This document shows positions 99-9,342 of a stretch of 9,342 nt of DNA, piece by piece. The stretch lies in NCBI GenBank assembly GCA_016209865.1, contig JACQVL010000031.1, positions 1-9,342 on the forward strand, in the 5' to 3' direction. A program made the translations under genes and the position numbers. The notes under the pieces were generated by a model. It ran no database searches, was not told the DNA's origin, and saw only the letters and a program-made list of their open reading frames with translations. Position 1 is the stretch's first letter; the number at the start of each line of letters is the position of its first letter. This DNA comes from Candidatus Latescibacterota bacterium. Lineage in GTDB: Bacteria > JAAXHH01 > JACQVL01.

Positions 99-1322
99 CT
101 ACACTCGCAGCGCGGCCACCGGGTCGACGTTGGTGGCCTTCCAGGCCGGGTACAGTCCGAACACCAGCCCGATCACGACCGACAGTCCGACCGCCAGGCC
201 GAGCGCATCCCAGGCGACGATGTGCGGGAGGTTCTGGAGTTGGATGACGATGCGCGTCCCCCCCAGGCCGACCCCGATGCCGATCAGTCCGCCCAGGCTG
301 GACACGACGAGCGCCTCCAGGACGAATTGCAGGAGAATGTCCCGCCGGCTGGCCCCGACCGACCGCCGGACGCCGATTTCCTTTCGCCGCTCAGACACGG
401 CGATCAGCATCAGGCTCATGATAACCACCCCGCCGATGATCATGGCGATGATGGCCACCCCCATGAGCGTCTTCGACAGGGTCGATCCGACCTGCGTCAC
501 CTGCGCCATCGACGCCCGCGGGCTGGTGATCGTGAAATCATCGAGAGCGGAGGGGGCGATGCGATGGCGCTCCCGCATCAGGGCGGTGATCTTCCGGATC
601 GCCGTCTCGCTGTCCTCAGGGTCTTTGAGCTGAGCGACCGTCATCGTCAGATAATCGCGATTGAACAGCCGTTTTGACGCGGTCGTCACCGGGATGAGGA
701 TCACGTTGTCGAGGCTGCCGCCGCCCGGTCCGGCGCCACGCGACGCGAGAACGGCCTTGACCTGGAACGGCACGTCCCCGATGCGCAGGGTCTTGTCGAG
801 CGGGTTTTCGTCCGGGAAGAGAGCCTTCTGCACGTCCATCCCGATGACGGCGACGCGGGCGAGCGACTGCATGTCGTCGTTCGTGAAGAACGCCCCTTCG
901 GTGACTTCATCCCCCCGCAGGTCGAGCCAGTTGGCGGAGACACCCACCACGGCGGGCGTGGCGGCACGATCCCGGTACTGCACGTCGATATCGAACGCGT
1001 TCTGGACTTGCGCGACCTGTTTGATCTCGGCCACTTCAGAGGCGATCGCCTGCGCGTCCTCAAACTTGAGGGTCGGTTCGGCGGTGGTCAGGGAGATCAT
1101 CCCGCGCATCCGTCCCGCGCCGGGACGGACGATCACGGTATCGAACGTCCCGACCATCCGTTTGAACCGCTTGATCGTCTCCTGCTTCGTGCTCTCCCCC
1201 ACCGAATACAAGATCGTCAGGGATGAGATCCCGACCATCACCCCGACCATCATGAAAAATGCACGGAGACGGTGCCGGGACATGCTGCGCCACGCCAGTC
1301 GGATACCTTCCAGGACTCCCAT
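99..1322 (-). CDS. ABC transporter permease, MacB/FtsX family (407 aa)
   Basis: Inner-membrane permease of a mechanotransmission-type ABC exporter. The layout is the standard four-helix FtsX fold: TM1 about residues 20-41, a large extracytoplasmic MacB-PCD-type domain about 45-280, then TM2 about 285-308, TM3 about 331-356 and TM4 about 371-392. Family hallmarks are the cytosolic loop ERRKEIGVRRSVGAS (311-325), which contacts the ATPase, and the C-terminal GLYPAWKATNVDPVAALR (389-406). There is no fused ATPase domain, unlike Escherichia coli MacB. That domain is the separate gene just upstream. The start is fixed by a strong AAGGAGG (1328-1334) 5 nt before the ATG; this site overlaps the end of the ATPase gene. 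By family these permeases move the periplasmic adaptor mechanically rather than carrying substrate through the membrane. The substrate cannot be read from sequence. Confidence 0.93.
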   Translation of the reverse strand: MGVLEGIRLAWRSMSRHRLRAFFMMVGVMVGISSLTILYSVGESTKQETIKRFKRMVGTFDTVIVRPGAGRMRGMISLTTAEPTLKFEDAQAIASEVAEIKQVAQVQNAFDIDVQYRDRAATPAVVGVSANWLDLRGDEVTEGAFFTNDDMQSLARVAVIGMDVQKALFPDENPLDKTLRIGDVPFQVKAVLASRGAGPGGGSLDNVILIPVTTASKRLFNRDYLTMTVAQLKDPEDSETAIRKITALMRERHRIAPSALDDFTITSPRASMAQVTQVGSTLSKTLMGVAIIAMIIGGVVIMSLMLIAVSERRKEIGVRRSVGASRRDILLQFVLEALVVSSLGGLIGIGVGLGGTRIVIQLQNLPHIVAWDALGLAVGLSVVIGLVFGLYPAWKATNVDPVAALRV

Positions 1323-1334
1323 GCGGTCCTCCTT

Positions 1335-2009
1335 TCATGCCGTCGAACGATCCGAGCCGATGCCGCCGTCACGCAGGACGATCTCCCGCGCGGCGTACGA
1401 CGCGACCGCGTCATCGTGCGTCACCAGGACGATCGTCCGGCCTTCGGTGTTCAGGTCTTGCAGCAGACGCATGATCTCCATCCCCGCCACCGAATCGAGG
1501 TTGCCCGTCGGCTCGTCCGCCAGGATCAGGTGGGGGTCGTTGATGAGCGCGCGGGCGATGGCGACACGCTGCTGCTCTCCGCCCGACAGCTCCGTCCCAT
1601 AATGGCGCGTCCGGTCGGCCAGTCCGACACGCTGCAACACGACCGTCGCTTTCGTGCGGTCGACGCGGCCGTTGCCGTAGATCATCGGAATCTCGACGTT
1701 CTCCAGGGCGGTCGTCCGGGGGATGAGGTTGAACGACTGGAAGACGAACCCGATCTTGCGACAACGGATGCGCGAGAGTTGCCGGTCCGAATAGCCGGAC
1801 ACGTCTTCGCCCTCCAGCCGGTACGTCCCGCTGGTCGGCGTGTCGAGGCAGCCGAGGATGTTCAGGATGGAGGATTTGCCCGAGCCGGACGGCCCGCGGA
1901 TCGTGACGAACTCGCCGGCGACGATCGCAAACGACACATCGTTCAAGGCCGTCACCGGGGTTCCATCCCCGCGACGGTACACCTTGGACACGTGCGACAC
2001 TTCGATCAT
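1335..2009 (-). CDS. ABC transporter ATPase, MacB/LolD type (224 aa)
   Basis: Cytoplasmic nucleotide-binding subunit powering the adjacent permeases. All motifs are present and in order: Walker A GPSGSGKS (39-46), Q-loop glutamine in FVFQSFNLIP (Q91), ABC signature LSGGEQQR (141-148), Walker B LILADE with the catalytic glutamate (161-166), D-loop GNLD (169-172) and the switch histidine in LVTHDD (H198). The length, about 225 aa, is normal for the MacB/LolD/YknY subgroup, and the FQSFNLIPRTTALENVEIPM segment is typical of it. The gene begins 3 nt after the adaptor stop. Its Shine-Dalgarno (AAGGA, 7 nt before ATG) lies inside the end of the adaptor gene, so the two are translated together. It should be functional; no key residue is missing. 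Confidence 0.96.
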   Translation of the reverse strand: MIEVSHVSKVYRRGDGTPVTALNDVSFAIVAGEFVTIRGPSGSGKSSILNILGCLDTPTSGTYRLEGEDVSGYSDRQLSRIRCRKIGFVFQSFNLIPRTTALENVEIPMIYGNGRVDRTKATVVLQRVGLADRTRHYGTELSGGEQQRVAIARALINDPHLILADEPTGNLDSVAGMEIMRLLQDLNTEGRTIVLVTHDDAVASYAAREIVLRDGGIGSDRSTA

Positions 2010-2012
2010 GCG

Positions 2013-3104
2013 TCAGTCCTTCGTCTCGACAACAGACGGGTTTCCCACGAGCACACGGTCGTTCGGGCTCACCCCCTTCTTGATCTCCGTCAACCCCACA
2101 TCGCGAATGCCCACGGTCACCACCCGCTTCTCCAGCTTGCCCTCGCGCTCGACGTAGACGAACCGCTCATCCTCGTCGCGATGGACGGCGGCGTTGGGGA
2201 CGACTAAGGTTTCGTGCTGCGCGGTCTTGATCGAGACGTTCGCGGTCATGTCGGGCTTCAACAGGTCGATACCATCCTGGATGCCGATCGTCACCTCATA
2301 GTTCACCACCCCGGAGATGATCGTCGCCTTAGGCGCAACCCGCTTGACCACGCCGGTGAACTCGCGGGACGGGTACGCCTCGACGGTGAACGTCACCGGG
2401 TTGGCGGGTTTGACGTTGGCGATGTCCGTCTCATCCACCAGCGCGACGAGTTCCAGGGCACGATCCCCGATGATCGTGACGAACGTGGGGGCTGTAAACG
2501 AGGCGGCGACCGTCTCTCCTTCTTGGGTGGACACCGAGGCGACGGTGCCGGAGATGGGCGCGTGGATCCGGGTGTAAGCCAGGTCGGCTTCCACGACGGC
2601 CAGGTCTCGCCGAGACTTCTCCAGTTTCGCCTGGGCCAACTCGACGACCGTGGCCAGGTCTTCGATTTCCTGGCGGGACACCAGGTTGGTCGCGAACAGG
2701 CGCTGGCTTCGTTCGAGGTCACGCTGCGTTTTGTTCAGCGCGACTTCATCCAGCTTCACTTGCGCCCGCGCCTGTGCGATGCGCTCTTCCAGGCCGCGCG
2801 ACTCGATCTCCGCGATGACTTCACCCTTGCTGATGTGGGAACCGACGGTGACGTTCAACTGCCTGACGATGCCCGACAGTTGCGCGCCGACGCGGACCTC
2901 CGCGCCCACTCGCAGCCGGACCACCCCGGTCGCGGACACGGTCGCGTCCAGGGTGCGGGTCTCCGGCGTGACGAGCGCCAGCCCTGCCGTCTCAGCGGAC
3001 GGAGACGCTCCGTAGCTCCGTCCCCAGTAGTAGACGGCGCCAGCGGTCAGTCCCAGCACACACAGGATGGGCAGCACCCAGCGCATCGTTCTCCCCGAAG
3101 TCAT
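2013..3104 (-). CDS. Periplasmic adaptor subunit, MacA/HlyD (RND-type MFP) family (363 aa)
   Basis: Membrane-anchored adaptor linking the ABC exporter to the cell exterior or an outer-membrane channel. Order of parts: N-terminal membrane anchor (about 9-27), first half of the lipoyl domain (VGAQLSGIVRQLNVTVGSHI, 72-91), a charged alpha-helical hairpin (about 104-175), second lipoyl half (YTRIHAPISGTVASVSTQEG, 177-196), beta-barrel (about 215-290) and a membrane-proximal domain (about 298-360). The lipoyl motif APISGTV is the family signature. The hairpin of roughly 70 residues is short to medium for the family. The ATG at 3104 overlaps the stop of the upstream gene as ATGA, a coupling arrangement that supports this start. 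An ATG at codon 7 with GGGGAGA ahead of it is an alternative start. No lipobox is visible, so the anchor is a helix rather than a lipid. Confidence 0.94.
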   Translation of the reverse strand: MTSGRTMRWVLPILCVLGLTAGAVYYWGRSYGASPSAETAGLALVTPETRTLDATVSATGVVRLRVGAEVRVGAQLSGIVRQLNVTVGSHISKGEVIAEIESRGLEERIAQARAQVKLDEVALNKTQRDLERSQRLFATNLVSRQEIEDLATVVELAQAKLEKSRRDLAVVEADLAYTRIHAPISGTVASVSTQEGETVAASFTAPTFVTIIGDRALELVALVDETDIANVKPANPVTFTVEAYPSREFTGVVKRVAPKATIISGVVNYEVTIGIQDGIDLLKPDMTANVSIKTAQHETLVVPNAAVHRDEDERFVYVEREGKLEKRVVTVGIRDVGLTEIKKGVSPNDRVLVGNPSVVETKD

Positions 3105-3568
3105 TGTTTCTTCTCGAATACCATCACGACGGACGGATTACTCCCCCGTACGGTTTCGACCGTCATCGTCTTGCCGTCGGGTGAGAGGGAACGGGTTTCT
3201 GTGCGAACGACCTTCGTGCCCGCGATCGCGCCCTCGCTCGTCCACGTCGTCACGAGTTTGCCCCCCACCCATTTCGTCACGGTCTCGCTCTTGTCTCCCA
3301 TCGCCGCGATGTTCGGCACCGGCTTCCCCGTCAGGTCGTAGCGGACTTCCCGTGTATCCTCTTGCCCGTTCATCTTGGCCACATTCGTGATCGTCAGCAT
3401 CGTGGCCGTCTGCTTGATCGTGGATGTCAATTGCAAGGCGGCCATCATCCCGACGTTTTTGCTCTTGGACGGGGTAAAGACCCAGGTCCCTGAGAAGTCG
3501 ATTTTCTCGGCGGCTGACGCGGTCACGGCCCATAGACAGAGGATGGTGAGTAGGAGGGCTTTCCTCAT
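3101..3568 (-). CDS. Small secreted protein, possibly a lipocalin-like beta-barrel (155 aa)
   Basis: First gene of the export operon. The N-terminus is a clear Sec signal peptide: MRK, a hydrophobic core ALLLTILCLWAV, then a TASA|AEK cleavage site near residue 19 or 20. The mature part opens with IDFSGTWVFTPSKSKN, a pattern seen in secreted calycin/lipocalin-like proteins of GC-rich environmental bacteria. It continues with alternating Thr/Val-rich segments that look like antiparallel strands (TATMLTITNVAK, TVTKWVGGKLVTTWTS, TKVVRTETRSLS, GKTMTVETVRG). The frame extends upstream to an ATG at 3592, but that start has no Shine-Dalgarno. The ATG at 3568 has AGGAG 7 nt upstream (3576-3580) and begins the signal peptide. 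The four-base overlap with the adaptor gene suggests a role tied to the exporter, perhaps cargo binding in the periplasm. The specific function is unknown and the family assignment is tentative. Confidence 0.85.
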   Translation of the reverse strand: MRKALLLTILCLWAVTASAAEKIDFSGTWVFTPSKSKNVGMMAALQLTSTIKQTATMLTITNVAKMNGQEDTREVRYDLTGKPVPNIAAMGDKSETVTKWVGGKLVTTWTSEGAIAGTKVVRTETRSLSPDGKTMTVETVRGSNPSVVMVFEKKQ

Positions 3569-3648
3569 AGGATATCTCCTGCAAAGCGTCATCTATTTTC
3601 GCTGAAATGGACGACGATGGTAGAGGAAAATGATGAAACGAAAATATA

Positions 3649-3677
3649 ATACTATCACGCACAACCTGTGGTGTCAA
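3649..3677 (-). promoter_or_regulatory. Sigma70-type promoter of the secreted protein/ABC exporter operon
   Basis: On the minus strand there is a perfect -35 TTGACA (3672-3677), a 17-bp spacer and a -10 TAGTAT (3649-3654, 4 of 6). The -10 is preceded by TGA, giving an extended -10 element. The predicted start is near 3642, leaving a leader of about 75 nt before the ATG at 3568. The -35 lies only about 30 bp beyond the alpha-galactosidase stop, and no terminator is visible between them, so read-through from that gene is also possible. Confidence 0.72.
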
Positions 3678-3706
3678 GACCAATCCCGCTCTCGCCCGGA
3701 GACGGT

Positions 3707-5638
3707 TCACGCGGAGACCTTCTGATACACGACCAGGTCCGACCGGTGCGGTTCCGGGAGGGTGAGCGGGAACCGGTTCATCAAGTCTGCGCCCGTCGCG
3801 CGGGCGGTTGCGCCGGTGCGGTCGAACGAGAGGTCGTACGTGGCGTGAGCGTCTAGGCCGCGGAGGGAGACGTCGGCCGTCCGGTACGGGCTGTGCGGCC
3901 GGCGGAAGGCGAGCACCATCCCCTCGTCCAGGTCCGGTCGGTGGTACTGGGAGGCGATCCAGTCGTGCAGGTCGCGGGAGTACGGGAGCAGCGGGTACCA
4001 CGCCCCGATGAGCAGATGGCGGACGGCGCGGTAGCGATCCAGGAGTCGTTTCCCGGTCTGGGCGTCAAAATCGGGAGCGTCCGCGATCCAGCCCAGACAG
4101 AGGGAGGAGGCCAGGGTTGAGTGAAACGAATACTCGTCCAGCCGGCTGAGGTGGGCGACGAACAGGTTGTTGGGGAGGTACTGGCTGAGTCCCCAGAGGC
4201 TCGCCTGATCGACTTCGTTATCGAACCAGTAATCGGTCTTCTGGTGGATGTGTAGCCGCATGATCGTCTCGAGGTCGATGCGCCGTCCGCCGCTGGCGCA
4301 TTCCTCGCGGAGGCTGTCCGGCCAGGTCTGGGCGATCCGGTCCCAGTAGGCGTACAGCCCTTCGATGTACTTCATCTCGGTGATGCCCTGGCGGTCGGGC
4401 GCGTCGTTGTCCCGCCAGTACGGGAGCGGGTCGATGTTGAAGTCCTGCCGGTAGACCCGGAACCCGGGCAGATCCATAAACCCTTTCACGATAGAGAAGA
4501 AGTAGTCCTGCACCTCGGACAGGCCGAAGTTCAGCAGGCAGGCGTTCCGTCTTCCCCCGGCTCTGGAGCTGTGCAGGATCCATTCCGGATGGTGGGTGTA
4601 GAGCCATGTGCCCTCCATCACCCGCTCCGGCTCGAACCACAGGCCGTAGATCATGCCGTGGTCTTTCGCAGCCGACGCCACCGGCCCCATCCCGTCGGGG
4701 TAGGCGTCCCGCCGCGGCGTCCAGTTCCCCGCACCCTCCGGCCAGCCCCCCTCGAACCAGCCCGCGTCGGTGATGACCGCCTCCAGGCCGAGCGGGGCGT
4801 ACGCCTTGATGAGGGAGATTTGATTCTCCGCGTCACACTCGTTGAGCCAGTGGCCGCCGCGCGTGAAGCAGGTGTTGCAAAACAGCGTCGGGAGCAGTTT
4901 CTCGCCGTTCCGCACGGCCGCGTAATGCCGATAGATCACCTGGCGAAACCGGGCGTGGCTGTCGAGCACATCCCCGGGCCACGCCAGCACGAGCATCCGG
5001 GGGGAGCGCACCCGCTCCCCCGGACGCAGCCGGAAATGGGTGAGTTCCAGGCCCGCCCTGAGATGCAGGCACCCATCCTCCTGGCAGCTCACCACCGCCC
5101 GCCACTGGCCGGACCAGCCGACCGCTACGACGAGCGTCCCGGCGCCGGTCTCGACCGTGAAGAACGGGAAATCCCGGTTCGACGAACGGCCGCCGCCCCC
5201 GCCTAAATGCTCATGATGCCCGGGGGGGATGCCGACGGTCCGGACCTCGAAATCGGTCGGGTTCGATGGCGCGCCATTCGTCCGGTGCAGCCGGTAGGGA
5301 GGCGTGTCGCGCAAGGGCGACTGGCAGGCCAGGTCGAGGGCCTGGACATCTTCGATGATGGGAGTCTCGACCGCGCCGGTGTTCTCGAAATACACCACCC
5401 ACTCTAACGCCGGGTCGTCAGCGAACCGGATGGCGTCCCACTCGACCCGCAGCCCGGTGTCCGGGTCGGTCCAGACGGTCGTGGTCATTGTCTGAGTGGC
5501 GTCCAGGGTGGTGGAGTGCTGCTGCTGAGGCCAGGCATCGAGGAGACTGTCGGCCGGCCGGCCGCCGTACGTGAACGAGAACGGGTACCGGGAGACCAGA
5601 TTGGGGATGACGGCCGGGGTCATCTCATCGCGTCTCAT
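3707..5638 (-). CDS. GH36-family alpha-galactosidase-like glycoside hydrolase (643 aa)
   Basis: Predicted to release alpha-linked galactose (melibiose/raffinose-type substrates) by a retaining mechanism. It has no signal peptide, so it is probably cytoplasmic. The N-terminal beta-sandwich (about 15-240) precedes a (beta/alpha)8 barrel with the GH36 landmarks VITDAGWFEGGW (288-299), YGLWFEPERV (331-340) and the post-strand segment GFRVYRQDFN (392-401), where D399 is the expected nucleophile. ECASGGRRIDL (446-456) follows, then TDYWFDNEVDQ (468-478), where D473 is the likely acid/base. A C-terminal beta-domain closes the protein. Length fits bacterial GH36 (about 640-740). The common KWD context of the nucleophile is RQD here, marking a divergent subgroup, so exact specificity is uncertain. 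The frame is open back to 5908, but that extension is low-quality sequence. ATG at 5638 has GAGGAG (5647-5652) 8 nt upstream, and homology begins just after it. It stands alone, with no sugar transporter nearby. Confidence 0.9.
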   Translation of the reverse strand: MRRDEMTPAVIPNLVSRYPFSFTYGGRPADSLLDAWPQQQHSTTLDATQTMTTTVWTDPDTGLRVEWDAIRFADDPALEWVVYFENTGAVETPIIEDVQALDLACQSPLRDTPPYRLHRTNGAPSNPTDFEVRTVGIPPGHHEHLGGGGGRSSNRDFPFFTVETGAGTLVVAVGWSGQWRAVVSCQEDGCLHLRAGLELTHFRLRPGERVRSPRMLVLAWPGDVLDSHARFRQVIYRHYAAVRNGEKLLPTLFCNTCFTRGGHWLNECDAENQISLIKAYAPLGLEAVITDAGWFEGGWPEGAGNWTPRRDAYPDGMGPVASAAKDHGMIYGLWFEPERVMEGTWLYTHHPEWILHSSRAGGRRNACLLNFGLSEVQDYFFSIVKGFMDLPGFRVYRQDFNIDPLPYWRDNDAPDRQGITEMKYIEGLYAYWDRIAQTWPDSLREECASGGRRIDLETIMRLHIHQKTDYWFDNEVDQASLWGLSQYLPNNLFVAHLSRLDEYSFHSTLASSLCLGWIADAPDFDAQTGKRLLDRYRAVRHLLIGAWYPLLPYSRDLHDWIASQYHRPDLDEGMVLAFRRPHSPYRTADVSLRGLDAHATYDLSFDRTGATARATGADLMNRFPLTLPEPHRSDLVVYQKVSA

Positions 5639-5727
5639 CGGGGTTGCTCCTCGAAGGTCATTGCGTGCCAAAGCAGAACGCGGGACGTACCGGATGAACC
5701 CCAGCATACCCAATTCCGGGGCCGGGC

Positions 5728-5743
5728 GCAAGAGTTTTCTTGC
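5728..5743. repeat. Short inverted repeat (hairpin), 6-bp arms
   Basis: GCAAGA-GTTT-TCTTGC forms a perfect 6-bp stem with a 4-nt loop. With a bulged base, GGGC on the left can also pair with GCCC on the right. It would lie in the 5' leader of the GH36 transcript if that starts further right. It is not followed by a T-tract on either strand, so it is not a clear intrinsic terminator. It could be an operator or leader structure; the role is unknown. Confidence 0.45.
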
Positions 5744-5766
5744 CCGACGGGACGGCCGGGCAAAAA

Positions 5767-5785
5767 TTTCGGTCTTTGTCCGAAA
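5767..5785. repeat. Inverted repeat with A/T flanks, 6-bp arms
   Basis: TTTCGG-TCTTTGT-CCGAAA is a perfect 6-bp inverted repeat just upstream of the distal nrdR promoter. On the minus strand the hairpin is followed by TTTTT (complement of 5762-5766), superficially terminator-like, but the stem has only three G-C pairs. It could be an operator for either divergent gene or a weak structure in the GH36 leader. Confidence 0.4.
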
Positions 5786-5791
5786 AAAGAC

Positions 5792-5821
5792 TTGACAGAA
5801 CACTACATATTGTGTTATTTT
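5792..5821 (+). promoter_or_regulatory. Distal nrdR-nrdJ promoter (P1), NrdR-controlled
   Basis: A perfect -35 TTGACA (5792-5797), an 18-bp spacer and a TG-preceded -10 TATTTT (5816-5821, 4 of 6) form an extended -10 type promoter. A near-consensus NrdR box (5800-5815) fills almost the whole spacer. Bound NrdR would therefore directly block RNA polymerase. Confidence 0.65.
5800..5815 (+). promoter_or_regulatory. NrdR box 1
   Basis: ACACTACATATTGTGT matches the published 16-bp NrdR consensus ACACWATATATWGTGT at 15 of 16 positions; only position 7 (C for T) differs. It lies inside the P1 spacer and 142 bp upstream of nrdR itself. NrdR is known to repress ribonucleotide reductase operons from such boxes, so this is the expected autoregulatory site. 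Confidence 0.88.
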
Positions 5822-5826
5822 GGAAG

Positions 5827-5844
5827 CTACCCTACAATGGGTAG
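5827..5844 (+). promoter_or_regulatory. Perfect inverted repeat overlapping a degenerate second NrdR box (5832-5847)
   Basis: CTACCC-TACAAT-GGGTAG is a perfect 6-6-6 inverted repeat just downstream of the P1 -10 element. Overlapping it, the 16-mer at 5832-5847 (CTACAATGGGTAGGGT) matches the NrdR consensus at 10 of 16 positions. It starts exactly 32 bp after box 1, about three helical turns, the spacing usual for tandem NrdR boxes. Either reading places a protein-binding site at the P1 transcription start. Which one is real cannot be decided from sequence. Confidence 0.55.
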
Positions 5845-5893
5845 GGTTTCGCTCCCCCATCGTGCCTGTGCGACGCCAGACCGAAAAACAGGC

Positions 5894-5922
5894 TTGACGA
5901 CTCAACATCAGTTTAGTATATT
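5894..5922 (+). promoter_or_regulatory. Proximal nrdR-nrdJ promoter (P2)
   Basis: -35 TTGACG (5894-5899, 5 of 6), a spacer of exactly 17 bp and -10 TATATT (5917-5922, 5 of 6). The predicted start is near 5929, giving a very short leader of about 28 nt before the nrdR ATG. It lies outside the NrdR box pair, so it could give a basal level not controlled in the same way as P1. Confidence 0.65.
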
Positions 5923-5956: not shown

Positions 5957-6424
5957 ATGCGCTGCCCGGCCTGTGGAACGCCCGATAGTCGTGTGGTCGA
6001 TTCTCGCACGGCGCAGAGTGGACGGGCCATCCGACGGCGCCGAGAGTGCGTCACGTGCGGGAAGCGGTTCACGACGTACGAGACGATCGAAGAAGGGGAA
6101 TTGGTCGTCATCAAATCGGATGGCCGGCGGGAACCGTTCGACCGGAACAAGGTGTTTCGGGGCATCCAGATCGCGTGTACGAAGCGGCCGATCTCGACCG
6201 ATCAGATCGAGGAGATCGTCGACCGGGTGACGTTCCATGTGACCAGCTTAGGAGAGCGCGAGGTCAGCACGAAGCGCATCGGCGAACTGGTCATGGAGGA
6301 GTTACGGAAACTCGATGAGGTGGCGTTCGTCCGGTTCGCGTCGGTCTACCGGGAGTTCAAGGACCGTGGGGAATTCTTAGAGGAGTTACGGCATTTAGAC
6401 AACCCGCGCGGGGAGCGTCCATAA
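5957..6424 (+). CDS. nrdR: Transcriptional repressor NrdR (155 aa)
   Basis: Nucleotide-sensing repressor of ribonucleotide reductase genes. The N-terminal zinc ribbon has its four ligands C3, C6, C31 and C34 (MRCPACG and ECVTCGKRF). An arginine-rich DNA-binding stretch lies between them (RAIRRRRE). The ATP-cone domain follows (about 49-139), opening VVIKSDGRREPFDRNKV and including KLDEVAFVRFASVYREF. Length is typical (150-160 aa). The frame is open upstream to 5516, but essentially all NrdR proteins begin MRCPxC, which fixes the start at 5957. No Shine-Dalgarno precedes it; instead the leader has a CCTCCTCC tract. It precedes nrdJ by 75 nt in the same direction, so regulator and target probably share a transcript. 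The NrdR boxes upstream indicate self-control. Confidence 0.97.
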   Translation: MRCPACGTPDSRVVDSRTAQSGRAIRRRRECVTCGKRFTTYETIEEGELVVIKSDGRREPFDRNKVFRGIQIACTKRPISTDQIEEIVDRVTFHVTSLGEREVSTKRIGELVMEELRKLDEVAFVRFASVYREFKDRGEFLEELRHLDNPRGERP

Positions 6425-6499: not shown

Positions 6500-9342
6500 A
6501 TGGCCACAGAGGAGATGGGTTCACAACTCGCAACGCAGACGCCGGCGGTCGAGGTCCGCAACGGACACGGCAAGCGCAACGGGCACGGCAAGGCGGGCAG
6601 CCAGACGAAGAAAGGCCGACGGGCCAGCGCGAAGAAGCGCGGTGGGCTGACCGTCAGGCGGCAGTACACCGTGCCCGGCGTCGACCCGTTCGACCAGGTG
6701 GAGTGGGACCGCCGGACGGCGACGATCACCGGGGAGAGCGGCGAGGTCGTGTTCGAGCAGAAGGATGTGGAGGTGCCCACGTTCTGGTCGCAGTTGGCGA
6801 CGAACGTCGTCGTCTCGAAGTACTTCCGCGGGCCGCTCGGCACCCCGCAGCGGGAGCGCAGCGTCCGCCAGATGATCAGCCGGATCACGAACACCCTGAC
6901 CGGCTGGGGCCGCGCCCAGGGCTACTTCGCCACCCCGGACGACGCGGCCGCGTTCCATGCGGAACTGACCCACATCCTCCTCAACCAGAAGGCGACGTTC
7001 AACAGCCCGGTGTGGTTTAATGTCGGGGTTGAGGAACACCCGCAAAGCTCGGCGTGCCAACCCTATCATGCGCTCGTTTCAACGCCGGACGGCATGATTC
7101 CGATCGGGCAGCTTGTCGAAGAAGGCCAGATCGGACATGAGGTCTATGACTCGAACGGCATCACACGGGTGATTGCGGTCAAGGCCAATGGGCAAAAGCC
7201 GATCTATCGGGTCACCCTTCGCAACGGCAACTTCATCGAAGCCACGCCGGATCATCTGGTCAAAGCCGTCTCAGAGCGACGGACTCAACCGGCTTGGCTG
7301 CGTGTGGATCAGCTCACGGATGGCATGCGGCTCCACCTTCATCCGCACAGAGCGAAGGTGACTGAGCCTGTTCTGGTCGCGTCTGGAGAGCTTCCCTCTT
7401 GGGAATCCTCTCCATTCTCAGTCATCGACCCGGTCGAAGAAATCGGCGACGAGCAACGAGTCCGTGAAGCCCAGGCGGCGCTGGCTGGCTGGCTCCAGGC
7501 GGATGGGTTCGTCGGTCAGTACAAGCATGGAACCAACACATCTCTCACGATTGAGTTCCAGGTTGCCAATGATGAAGAGTATGCCTGGATCATCGAACGC
7601 CTCGACCTCGTCTTCGGGGATGTTCATCGGCACGTCCGTGAAGTCGAAACAAAGGATAAGACGCTTCATGTCCGCAGGATTCGATTGTACGGTAAGGTCC
7701 TGCGTGAGTTCGTCGTGGAATGGGACCTGCTGGCGCGTGGGACCGAGATCCGCGTGCCTTCGAGGCTCTGGAAGGCTTCACGTGGCGAGATTGTCGCGTA
7801 CCTGCGCAGTGTTTTCCAGGCAGATGGGTACGTGACCATCCGCCGTGATCAAGATCGTGGACAGGAAAGCAGCCACATCGCGGTCGCTGTCATCGGTGAG
7901 CGGTGGACTGAGGACTTGCAGTTGTTGCTGAATGTCATGGGGATCTATTCCCGCCGTCTGCCCAAGATGGATCGTCGGAGCAACCGTCATGATCTCTACG
8001 AGGTGCAGATTAATATTGGCTCAGAACGAACACGGTATGCTGAACTGGTCGGGTTTATCAGTGAGGAGAAGCAACGCCGATTGCGTGAGTCATTGAGTCT
8101 GCCACGCCAGAAGAACTGTGGCGATCTGAGAGAGGAAGAGATCGTCTCTATCGAATCTCTCGGCATCCAGGATGTATACGATATCCAAACTGAGTCGGGC
8201 GAGTACCTCTCCAATAACGTGGCTGTCCATAACTGCTTCATCCTTTCCGTCGACGACACGATGGAATCGATCCTCGACTGGTGCAAGACGGAAGGGATGA
8301 TTTTCAAGGGCGGCTCCGGGTCGGGCATCAACCTGTCGAAGATCCGGTCGTCGAAAGAGACGCTCTCCGCCGGCGGCCAGGCGTCCGGGCCGATCTCGTT
8401 CATGCGGGCGGCGGACTCCGTCGCCGGGTCGATCAAGTCGGGCGGGAAGACCCGGCGGGCAGCGAAGATGGTCGTCCTGAACATCGACCATCCGGACGTC
8501 GTCGAGTTCATCTGGTGCAAGGCGACGGAGGAGAAGAAGGCCTGGGCCTTAGGCGCGGCGGGCTGGGACATGTCCCTCAACGGGGAGGCGTGGAGTTCGA
8601 TCCAGTTCCAGAACGCGAACAACTCCGTCCGGGTGACGGAGGAGTTCATGCGGGTGTACGACCAGGGAAAGGACTGGCCGCTGCGGGCGGTGACGACCGG
8701 GAAGGTGCTGGAGACGCACCCGGCGCGCGATCTGATGCGATGGATCGCGGAGGCGGCCTGGCAGTGCGGCGATCCGGGCATGCAGTACGACACGACGATC
8801 AACGACTGGCACACCTGCCCGAACAGCGGGCGGATCAATGCGAGTAATCCGTGCTGCATCACCGGTGACACCCTCATCGCGGTAGCAGATGGACGCAACG
8901 CTGTGCCGATCCGAGAGTTAGTTGGACAGGAGGTTCCAGTCTATGCTTGGGATCACCGGACGTGTAAGACTGTTATCGCAAGGATGTGGAACATCGGTAT
9001 CAAGCGGCAGCAGGTGCCTGTCTATCGTGTGACATTGGATGATGGTTCATCCTTCCGCGCCACTGATGACCATCTCATTATGCTTCGTGATGGGTCGTAT
9101 CGGCAGGTTAAGGATTTGAAAGCAGGCGATTCACTGAATCCATTCCATTCCAAGATCCGCCAACCGCCTGACATACGTACTGCACGCCGCTACGTCTACA
9201 CAGGTCAGGGTTGGCGGGCGCAGTATCGCTGGGTCTGGGCAGCAGTCCACGGTAAGAAGCCTGAAGGTTATCACCTTCACCATCGAGATTTCAACAGCCT
9301 GAATGATCGCCTGGACAACTTGCAATTACTGATACCAGAGGA
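6500..9342 (+). CDS. nrdJ: Class II (adenosylcobalamin-dependent) ribonucleoside-diphosphate reductase with two inteins; 3' end outside window
   Basis: Makes deoxyribonucleotides from ribonucleotides using a B12-generated thiyl radical, with no need for oxygen. ATG at 6500 follows GAGGAGGAG (6486-6494). The frame is open for 947 codons to the window edge. Reductase segments are residues 1-185, 579-785 and the part beyond the window. Residues 1-50 are basic and low-complexity. Then come family blocks VPGVDPFDQVEWDRR (56-70), KYFRGPLGTPQRERSVRQMI, NSPVWFNVGVEE, CFILSVDDTMESIL (579-592), FKGGSGSGINLSKIRSSKE, FMRAADSVAGSIKSGGKTRR, NANNSVRV and NDWHTCPNSGRINASNPC (768-785). No N-terminal ATP cone is seen. 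Inteins occupy 186-578 and 786 onward. After splicing, C579 is the first cysteine of the redox pair and C785 (NPC, normally followed by SEY) is the thiyl-radical cysteine, matching C134 and C322 of Thermotoga maritima NrdJ by motif. Confidence 0.95.
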   Translation, partial: MATEEMGSQLATQTPAVEVRNGHGKRNGHGKAGSQTKKGRRASAKKRGGLTVRRQYTVPGVDPFDQVEWDRRTATITGESGEVVFEQKDVEVPTFWSQLATNVVVSKYFRGPLGTPQRERSVRQMISRITNTLTGWGRAQGYFATPDDAAAFHAELTHILLNQKATFNSPVWFNVGVEEHPQSSACQPYHALVSTPDGMIPIGQLVEEGQIGHEVYDSNGITRVIAVKANGQKPIYRVTLRNGNFIEATPDHLVKAVSERRTQPAWLRVDQLTDGMRLHLHPHRAKVTEPVLVASGELPSWESSPFSVIDPVEEIGDEQRVREAQAALAGWLQADGFVGQYKHGTNTSLTIEFQVANDEEYAWIIERLDLVFGDVHRHVREVETKDKTLHVRRIRLYGKVLREFVVEWDLLARGTEIRVPSRLWKASRGEIVAYLRSVFQADGYVTIRRDQDRGQESSHIAVAVIGERWTEDLQLLLNVMGIYSRRLPKMDRRSNRHDLYEVQINIGSERTRYAELVGFISEEKQRRLRESLSLPRQKNCGDLREEEIVSIESLGIQDVYDIQTESGEYLSNNVAVHNCFILSVDDTMESILDWCKTEGMIFKGGSGSGINLSKIRSSKETLSAGGQASGPISFMRAADSVAGSIKSGGKTRRAAKMVVLNIDHPDVVEFIWCKATEEKKAWALGAAGWDMSLNGEAWSSIQFQNANNSVRVTEEFMRVYDQGKDWPLRAVTTGKVLETHPARDLMRWIAEAAWQCGDPGMQYDTTINDWHTCPNSGRINASNPCCITGDTLIAVADGRNAVPIRELVGQEVPVYAWDHRTCKTVIARMWNIGIKRQQVPVYRVTLDDGSSFRATDDHLIMLRDGSYRQVKDLKAGDSLNPFHSKIRQPPDIRTARRYVYTGQGWRAQYRWVWAAVHGKKPEGYHLHHRDFNSLNDRLDNLQLLIPE
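6557..6592 (+). repeat. Tandem 18-bp duplication in the nrdJ N-terminal extension
   Basis: Two adjacent 18-bp units (6557-6574 and 6575-6592) differ at one base and encode RNGHGK twice (residues 20-31). They lie in the basic low-complexity leader of NrdJ, ahead of the conserved fold, and look like a recent in-frame slippage duplication. Confidence 0.85.
7055..8233 (+). mobile_element. Intein 1 in NrdJ, complete, with LAGLIDADG homing endonuclease (393 aa)
   Basis: Self-splicing protein element translated in frame with NrdJ (host residues 186-578). Block A starts at C186: CQPYHALVSTPDGMIPIGQL. Block B has the TxxH motif in IEATPDHLVKAV (T249, H252). The C-terminal blocks are VYDIQTESGEYLSNN and NVAVHN, with the penultimate His and terminal Asn, followed by Cys579 as the +1 nucleophile. 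All splicing residues are present. The endonuclease domain has two dodecapeptide motifs, LAGWLQADG (328-336) and LRSVFQADG (435-443). Both catalytic aspartates (D335, D442) are kept, so both splicing and homing look intact. Splicing would join HPQSSA to CFILSV, restoring the conserved NrdJ block. Codon use is more T-ending and less GC-rich than in the reductase segments, consistent with horizontal acquisition. Confidence 0.95.
8855..9342 (+). mobile_element. Intein 2 in NrdJ with HNH homing endonuclease (C-terminal end outside window)
   Basis: Second in-frame intein, starting at host residue C786 after NASNPC. Block A is CITGDTLIAVADGRNAVPIR, a classic start. Block B carries TxxH in FRATDDHLIML (T855, H858), followed by the usual RQVKDLKAGDSL segment. 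The endonuclease part has WVWAAVHGKKPEGYHLHHRD and FNSLNDRLDNLQLL (about residues 912-944). This is the H-H...N...N-L pattern of HNH-type homing enzymes of the phage/intein HNH_3 group, not LAGLIDADG. The expected downstream host sequence is SEYMFLDD-like, so the +1 residue should be Ser. The C-terminal blocks F and G (His-Asn end) lie beyond the window, so splicing competence cannot be confirmed here. Codon use resembles intein 1 rather than the host segments. Confidence 0.9.

What the first reader, a model, noticed from the sequence alone, without database searches (positions are those of the whole stretch)
7055..9342. Two inteins with unrelated homing endonucleases interrupt one ribonucleotide reductase at two catalytic cysteines
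Intein 1 (LAGLIDADG) is inserted immediately before the NrdJ cysteine of SACFILS. Intein 2 (HNH) is inserted immediately after the thiyl-radical cysteine of NPC(SEY). Both motif sets are directly visible. Inteins are known in reductase genes, but a pair carrying different endonuclease classes in one class II enzyme implies two independent invasions of the most conserved codons. The enzyme must stay inactive until both splice.
Basis: partly seen in the sequence, partly recalled or inferred. Interest (0 to 1): 0.72.

Follow-up and report, generated by a model that had tools for sequence, protein, structure and literature searches.

The report
Two inteins in one ribonucleotide reductase
An uncultured bacterium's only detectable gene for making DNA building blocks is interrupted by two foreign self-splicing protein elements placed exactly at two catalytic cysteines; each kind is known, but one gene carrying a LAGLIDADG element and an HNH element at these two sites was not seen elsewhere in our sample.

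Summary
Confirmed, with one gap. The ORF at 6500-9342 is a class II (B12-dependent) ribonucleotide reductase gene, nrdJ, downstream of nrdR. Intein 1 (7055-8233, C186-N578, 393 aa) is a complete LAGLIDADG intein at SA|C; its +1 Cys579 aligns with T. maritima NrdJ Cys134. Intein 2 starts at 8855 (C786), right after Cys785, which aligns with thiyl-radical Cys322. It has blocks A and B and an HNH_3 domain, but the contig ends 488 bases in; its C-terminus and the rest of nrdJ were not found in the 83%-complete genome. Full-length relatives (446 aa, ...HN|SEYM) sit at the same site in a Berkelbacteria and a Nitrospirae genome, 68-69% identical although exteins are only 50-56% identical. All 14 same-order genes are empty at both sites, and intein GC3 (64%, 56%) is far below extein GC3 (91-92%): two separate horizontal acquisitions. 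No other ribonucleotide reductase was found, so splicing is probably essential. The kind is known: NrdJ-1 has NPC/SEI flanks, and a Trichodesmium RNR has four inteins. Only the mixed-endonuclease pairing is unusual. Splicing and homing are inferred, not shown.

The parts
5957..6424 (+). nrdR, transcriptional repressor of RNR genes, upstream neighbour of nrdJ
   Evidence: Pfam Zn_ribbon_NrdR 2e-20 and ATP-cone 3.3e-26
6500..7054 (+). NrdJ N-extein (residues 1-185)
   Evidence: PF08471 4.6e-22; 63-71% identical to same-order NrdJ over this part
7055..8233 (+). Intein 1, residues C186-N578 (393 aa), LAGLIDADG type, complete, at SA|C
   Evidence: Motifs read; TIGR01445 6.2e-9; LAGLIDADG_3 5.5e-11; same-site homologues L050, L075, L084, L091; fold match to inteins and I-DmoI; GC3 64%
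8234..8854 (+). NrdJ middle extein (residues 579-785), from the redox cysteine C579 to the thiyl-radical cysteine C785
   Evidence: PF02867 2.5e-53; aligned with 1XJE residues 134 and 322
8855..9342 (+). Intein 2, from C786, HNH type, at NPC|S; cut off by the contig end (162 complete codons)
   Evidence: TIGR01445 4.1e-9; HNH_3 2e-9; 68-69% identical to the full-length inteins of L022 and L024; GC3 56%

Best explanation
This is the only detectable ribonucleotide reductase gene (nrdJ) of an uncultured bacterium, invaded separately by two mobile inteins. After translation intein 1 removes itself by the standard Cys1 / last Asn / Cys+1 reaction and rejoins SA-CFILS; intein 2 would do the same with Cys1 / last Asn / Ser+1 and rejoin NPC-SEY. 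Only the doubly spliced protein would have both catalytic cysteines in a continuous active site. At the DNA level the LAGLIDADG endonuclease of intein 1 and the HNH endonuclease of intein 2 would cut intein-free nrdJ alleles and be copied in by repair (homing). Shown: the anatomy, the junctions, the foreign composition, the patchy distribution and relatives at the same sites. Inferred: splicing, endonuclease activity, completeness of intein 2, and inactivity of unspliced protein.
For: Domain matches; conserved splicing motifs at both N-termini and at the C-terminus of intein 1; predicted fold of intein 1 matches known inteins and I-DmoI; junctions at residues aligned with T. maritima 134 and 322; full-length relatives of intein 2 at the same site ending HN|SEYM; empty sites in all 14 same-order genes; intein GC3 64% and 56% against 91-92% in exteins; intein 2 more similar to its relatives than the exteins are; no other RNR barrel, class I small subunit or class III RNR in the genome.
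Against: The 3' part of intein 2 and of nrdJ is missing from the assembly. Splicing and homing were not tested. The assembly is 83% complete, so another RNR could be in the missing part. The intein 1 model is of moderate confidence (mean pLDDT 68.7).
Confidence: 0.88

Rival explanations
1. Intein 2 is degenerate or truncated in this strain, so the gene is a decaying copy and the cell relies on another RNR in the unassembled part of the genome.
For: The contig ends inside intein 2 and the C-terminal half of nrdJ was not found; the genome is 83% complete.
Against: Reading frame open through 947 codons with intact motifs; extein GC3 and conservation look normal; no other RNR class found; a contig end is common in a 356-contig assembly.
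Confidence: 0.07
2. Intein 2 is naturally split here, like NrdJ-1: the N-half ends near the contig end and the C-half with the C-extein is encoded elsewhere, joined by trans-splicing.
For: The known split intein NrdJ-1 has the same flanks, NPC and SEI (PMC13123727); the gene's 3' half is not on this contig.
Against: The two closest relatives (68-69%) are contiguous 446-aa inteins; no stop codon occurs before the contig end; no C-half was found elsewhere in the genome.
Confidence: 0.03
3. The inteins are kept as a regulatory switch: splicing at redox-sensitive cysteines holds the reductase inactive until conditions are right.
For: C579 is at once the +1 splicing nucleophile of intein 1 and the residue aligned with the redox cysteine 134; both junctions lie at active-site cysteines.
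Against: Nothing here tests it: close relatives do without, composition points to recent arrival, and insertion at conserved codons is explained by homing alone.
Confidence: 0.05

Closest known systems
HNH inteins of nrdJ in a Berkelbacteria (L022) and a Nitrospirae (L024) genome
   Same: Same site (NPC|S), 68-69% identity to intein 2 over 162 aa, same HNH_3 domain.
   Different: Full length is seen there (446 aa). The first site is empty in L022 and not visible in L024, whose contig starts after it.
LAGLIDADG inteins at SA|C of nrdJ in L050, L084, L091, and mini-intein in L075
   Same: Same site and both junction motifs (CQPY... HN|CFIL), 44-51% identity to intein 1.
   Different: None has the HNH intein at the second site; L075 and L091 instead have one at a third site, APTG|T.
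NrdJ-1 split intein (marine metagenome), native flanks NPC and SEI
   Same: Same insertion point after NPC with Ser+1 (PMC13123727).
   Different: Split in two genes and lacks a contiguous HNH part; its sequence was not compared here.
Intein of the class I RNR of Synechococcus phage S-CBWM1
   Same: 36% identity to intein 2 with a shared ADGRNAVPIKELV stretch, an H..H HNH-like region, interrupts SNL|CTEI.
   Different: Class I enzyme; inserted before rather than after the cysteine; 342 aa.
Ribonucleotide reductase of Trichodesmium erythraeum with four inteins
   Same: Several inteins in one RNR gene (PMC1635734).
   Different: Its inteins and sites were not compared with these here.

Membership tests
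Class II ribonucleotide reductase NrdJ (host) | NrdJ N-terminal and barrel domains with catalytic cysteines | tested here: met
   PF08471 and PF02867; C579 and C785 aligned with 1XJE residues 134 and 322
Class II ribonucleotide reductase NrdJ (host) | C-terminal barrel half and TSCPD region | not testable with these tools
   Beyond the contig end; not found in the assembly
Class 1 intein, LAGLIDADG type (intein 1) | Cys1, block B TxxH, terminal HN and Cys/Ser/Thr +1 | tested here: met
   C186, ATPDH, VHN|C579; TIGR01445 above cut-off
Class 1 intein, LAGLIDADG type (intein 1) | Two LAGLIDADG motifs with acidic residues | tested here: met
   LAGWLQADG and LRSVFQADG; PF14528, two stretches; fold match to I-DmoI and inteins
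Class 1 intein, HNH type (intein 2) | Cys1, block B TxxH, HNH domain | tested here: met
   C786, ATDDH, HNH_3 2e-9; TIGR01445 above cut-off. The last part of HNH_3 is cut off
Class 1 intein, HNH type (intein 2) | Terminal HN and Ser+1 | not testable with these tools
   Beyond the contig end; met in relatives L022 and L024
Active, mobile inteins | Ligated exteins; cleavage of the empty site | not testable with these tools
   Needs bench work

The most novel reading that the evidence does not exclude
One RNR gene holds active inteins of two endonuclease classes at two catalytic cysteines, and the HNH intein belongs to a lineage that has homed to the active-site cysteine of RNR genes of different classes, class II in bacteria of several phyla and class I in a cyanophage, pointing to phage carriage between enzyme classes.
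Probability: 0.25. Interest if true: 0.45.

Novelty: new member of a known kind. Interest (0 to 1): 0.28.

Why it matters
It is a clear case of inteins settling at catalytic codons: the +1 nucleophile of intein 1 is itself an active-site cysteine. It also shows one short NrdJ stretch (NP-C-SEY) used by several intein types: HNH after the cysteine, LAGLIDADG before it, a mini-intein, and the split NrdJ-1. That makes it a useful system for asking how different homing endonucleases converge on one target. The double insertion in what seems to be the only RNR would make growth depend on two splicing events.

Tried and rejected
Looked for the missing 3' part of nrdJ in the own genome with TSCPD (PF12637) and with the L022 intein and C-extein: nothing. 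Looked for relatives of either intein in viral contigs with single proteins and an alignment: none. Intein 1 in phages: one remote hit (23%). Plasmids, intein 2: only remote gyrB, DnaB-like and terminase hits. Considered that the gene is spare: not favoured, for lack of any other RNR class, with the caveat of 83% completeness. Considered a foreign or misassembled contig: unlikely, because the extein is closest to same-order genomes (76-82% over 578-786). The first GC3 figure for a minus-strand gene was taken in the wrong frame and was replaced.

Full report
What is there. The window is the whole of contig C299 of a 3.75 Mb, 83%-complete genome. An ORF starting at 6500 stays open to the contig end (947 residues). 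Pfam places NrdJ domains at residues 81-163 and 578-786, an intein splicing domain, LAGLIDADG_3 at 431-518 and HNH_3 at 910-944. Upstream on the same strand lies nrdR, 5957-6424, an expected neighbour.

Intein 1. It runs from Cys186 to Asn578 (7055-8233): CQPYHALVSTPDGMIPIG at the start, ATPDH as block B, LAGWLQADG and LRSVFQADG as endonuclease motifs, VYDIQTESGEYLSNNVAVHN at the end, then Cys579 of CFILS. The N-terminal splicing region is recognised above cut-off. An AlphaFold model of moderate confidence (mean pLDDT 68.7) finds the TliVMA, PI-PfuI and PI-SceI inteins first and I-DmoI for the endonuclease part; the low global TM-scores and high rmsd of the intein matches mean that single domains are matched, not their relative placement. 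Homologues sit at exactly this site in L050 (Actinomycetota), L084 (Omnitrophota) and L091 (Planctomycetales), 49-51% identical, and as a 145-residue mini-intein without endonuclease in L075.

Intein 2. It starts at Cys786 (8855) after NPC and shows CITGDTLIAVADGRNAVPI, block B ATDDH and most of an HNH_3 domain. The contig ends 488 bases into it. Full-length relatives of 446 residues sit at the same place in a Berkelbacteria genome (L022) and a Nitrospirae genome (L024), ending GIFIHN|SEYM and GVFVHN|SEYM; the L022 copy also has a NUMOD3 motif. The remainder of the window's gene was not found in its assembly.

The insertion points. In the alignment with T. maritima NrdJ (1XJE), Cys579 pairs with residue 134 and Cys785 with residue 322. 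From general knowledge of this enzyme, 322 carries the thiyl radical and 134 belongs to the redox pair.

Two independent arrivals. All 14 same-order genes that matched read SACF and NPCSEY without insertion. Third-position GC is 91-92% in the exteins, where no 162-codon stretch falls below 90%, and 77-87% in the other genes of the window, against 64% in intein 1 and 56% in intein 2. Intein 2 is 68-69% identical to its relatives while the exteins are 50-56% identical, the pattern expected if the intein moved between distant hosts. The nearest relatives of the two inteins live in different phyla, and L022 is empty at the first site. In a sample of 384 genomes spread over the domain, no other genome had a close copy of either intein.

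The second site is a hot spot. Besides the HNH type after the cysteine (NPC|S), two Omnitrophota genes (L041, L060) have LAGLIDADG-like inteins one codon earlier (NP|C), and L047 has a 150-residue mini-intein at NPC|S. The split intein NrdJ-1 has native flanks NPC and SEI (PMC13123727). In Synechococcus phage S-CBWM1 an intein with a closely similar start (ADGRNAVPIKELV) interrupts the class I enzyme at SNL|CTEI. A third NrdJ site, APTG|T, is occupied in L075, L091, L092 and L101. Distant relatives of intein 2 are found in genes that read as GyrB and GyrA.

Function. No other RNR barrel protein, class I small subunit or class III enzyme was found in the genome. The control genomes rang as expected, but the assembly is incomplete. 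If the gene is the only RNR, both splicing events are needed for DNA synthesis. That unspliced protein is inactive is an inference from the positions.

Compared with what is known. Inteins in RNR genes, at conserved codons and several to a gene, are well documented: four in one Trichodesmium gene (PMC1635734), LAGLIDADG inteins in two RNR genes of Azotobacter chroococcum (PMC4465626), and phage cases (PMC3653736). LAGLIDADG is the commonest intein endonuclease and HNH a known homing family (PMC7765530). I found no paper describing a LAGLIDADG and an HNH intein together in one class II RNR, and none of the relatives read or one search has both sites filled, but the literature held is partial and the survey small.

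Verdict. It is a new member of a known kind with one uncommon pairing.

Noticed in passing
L041 and L060 (Omnitrophota nrdJ): A LAGLIDADG-like intein sits one codon earlier than intein 2 (NP|C instead of NPC|S), so two intein types use adjacent codons of one motif.
   Followed up: partly
L108:3004-4029 (Synechococcus phage S-CBWM1): A related intein interrupts the class I RNR at SNL|CTEI, with the ADGRNAVPIKELV stretch shared with intein 2.
   Followed up: partly
L075, L091, L092, L101: A third nrdJ intein site, APTG|T, is filled; L075 and L091 also have an intein at the first site.
   Followed up: no
L109 (genome of L024, C47): A gene reading as GyrB has an HNH-like intein and, further on, the start of what looks like a second intein.
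   Followed up: no
L022 and L024 inteins: Between block F and the terminal HN there is an extra stretch (SCVEG...NYSG) longer than in usual inteins, in part also in the S-CBWM1 intein.
   Followed up: no
99-5908, minus strand: A MacB-type ABC export set (permease, ATPase, HlyD-like protein) and a GH36 alpha-galactosidase-like gene.
   Followed up: no
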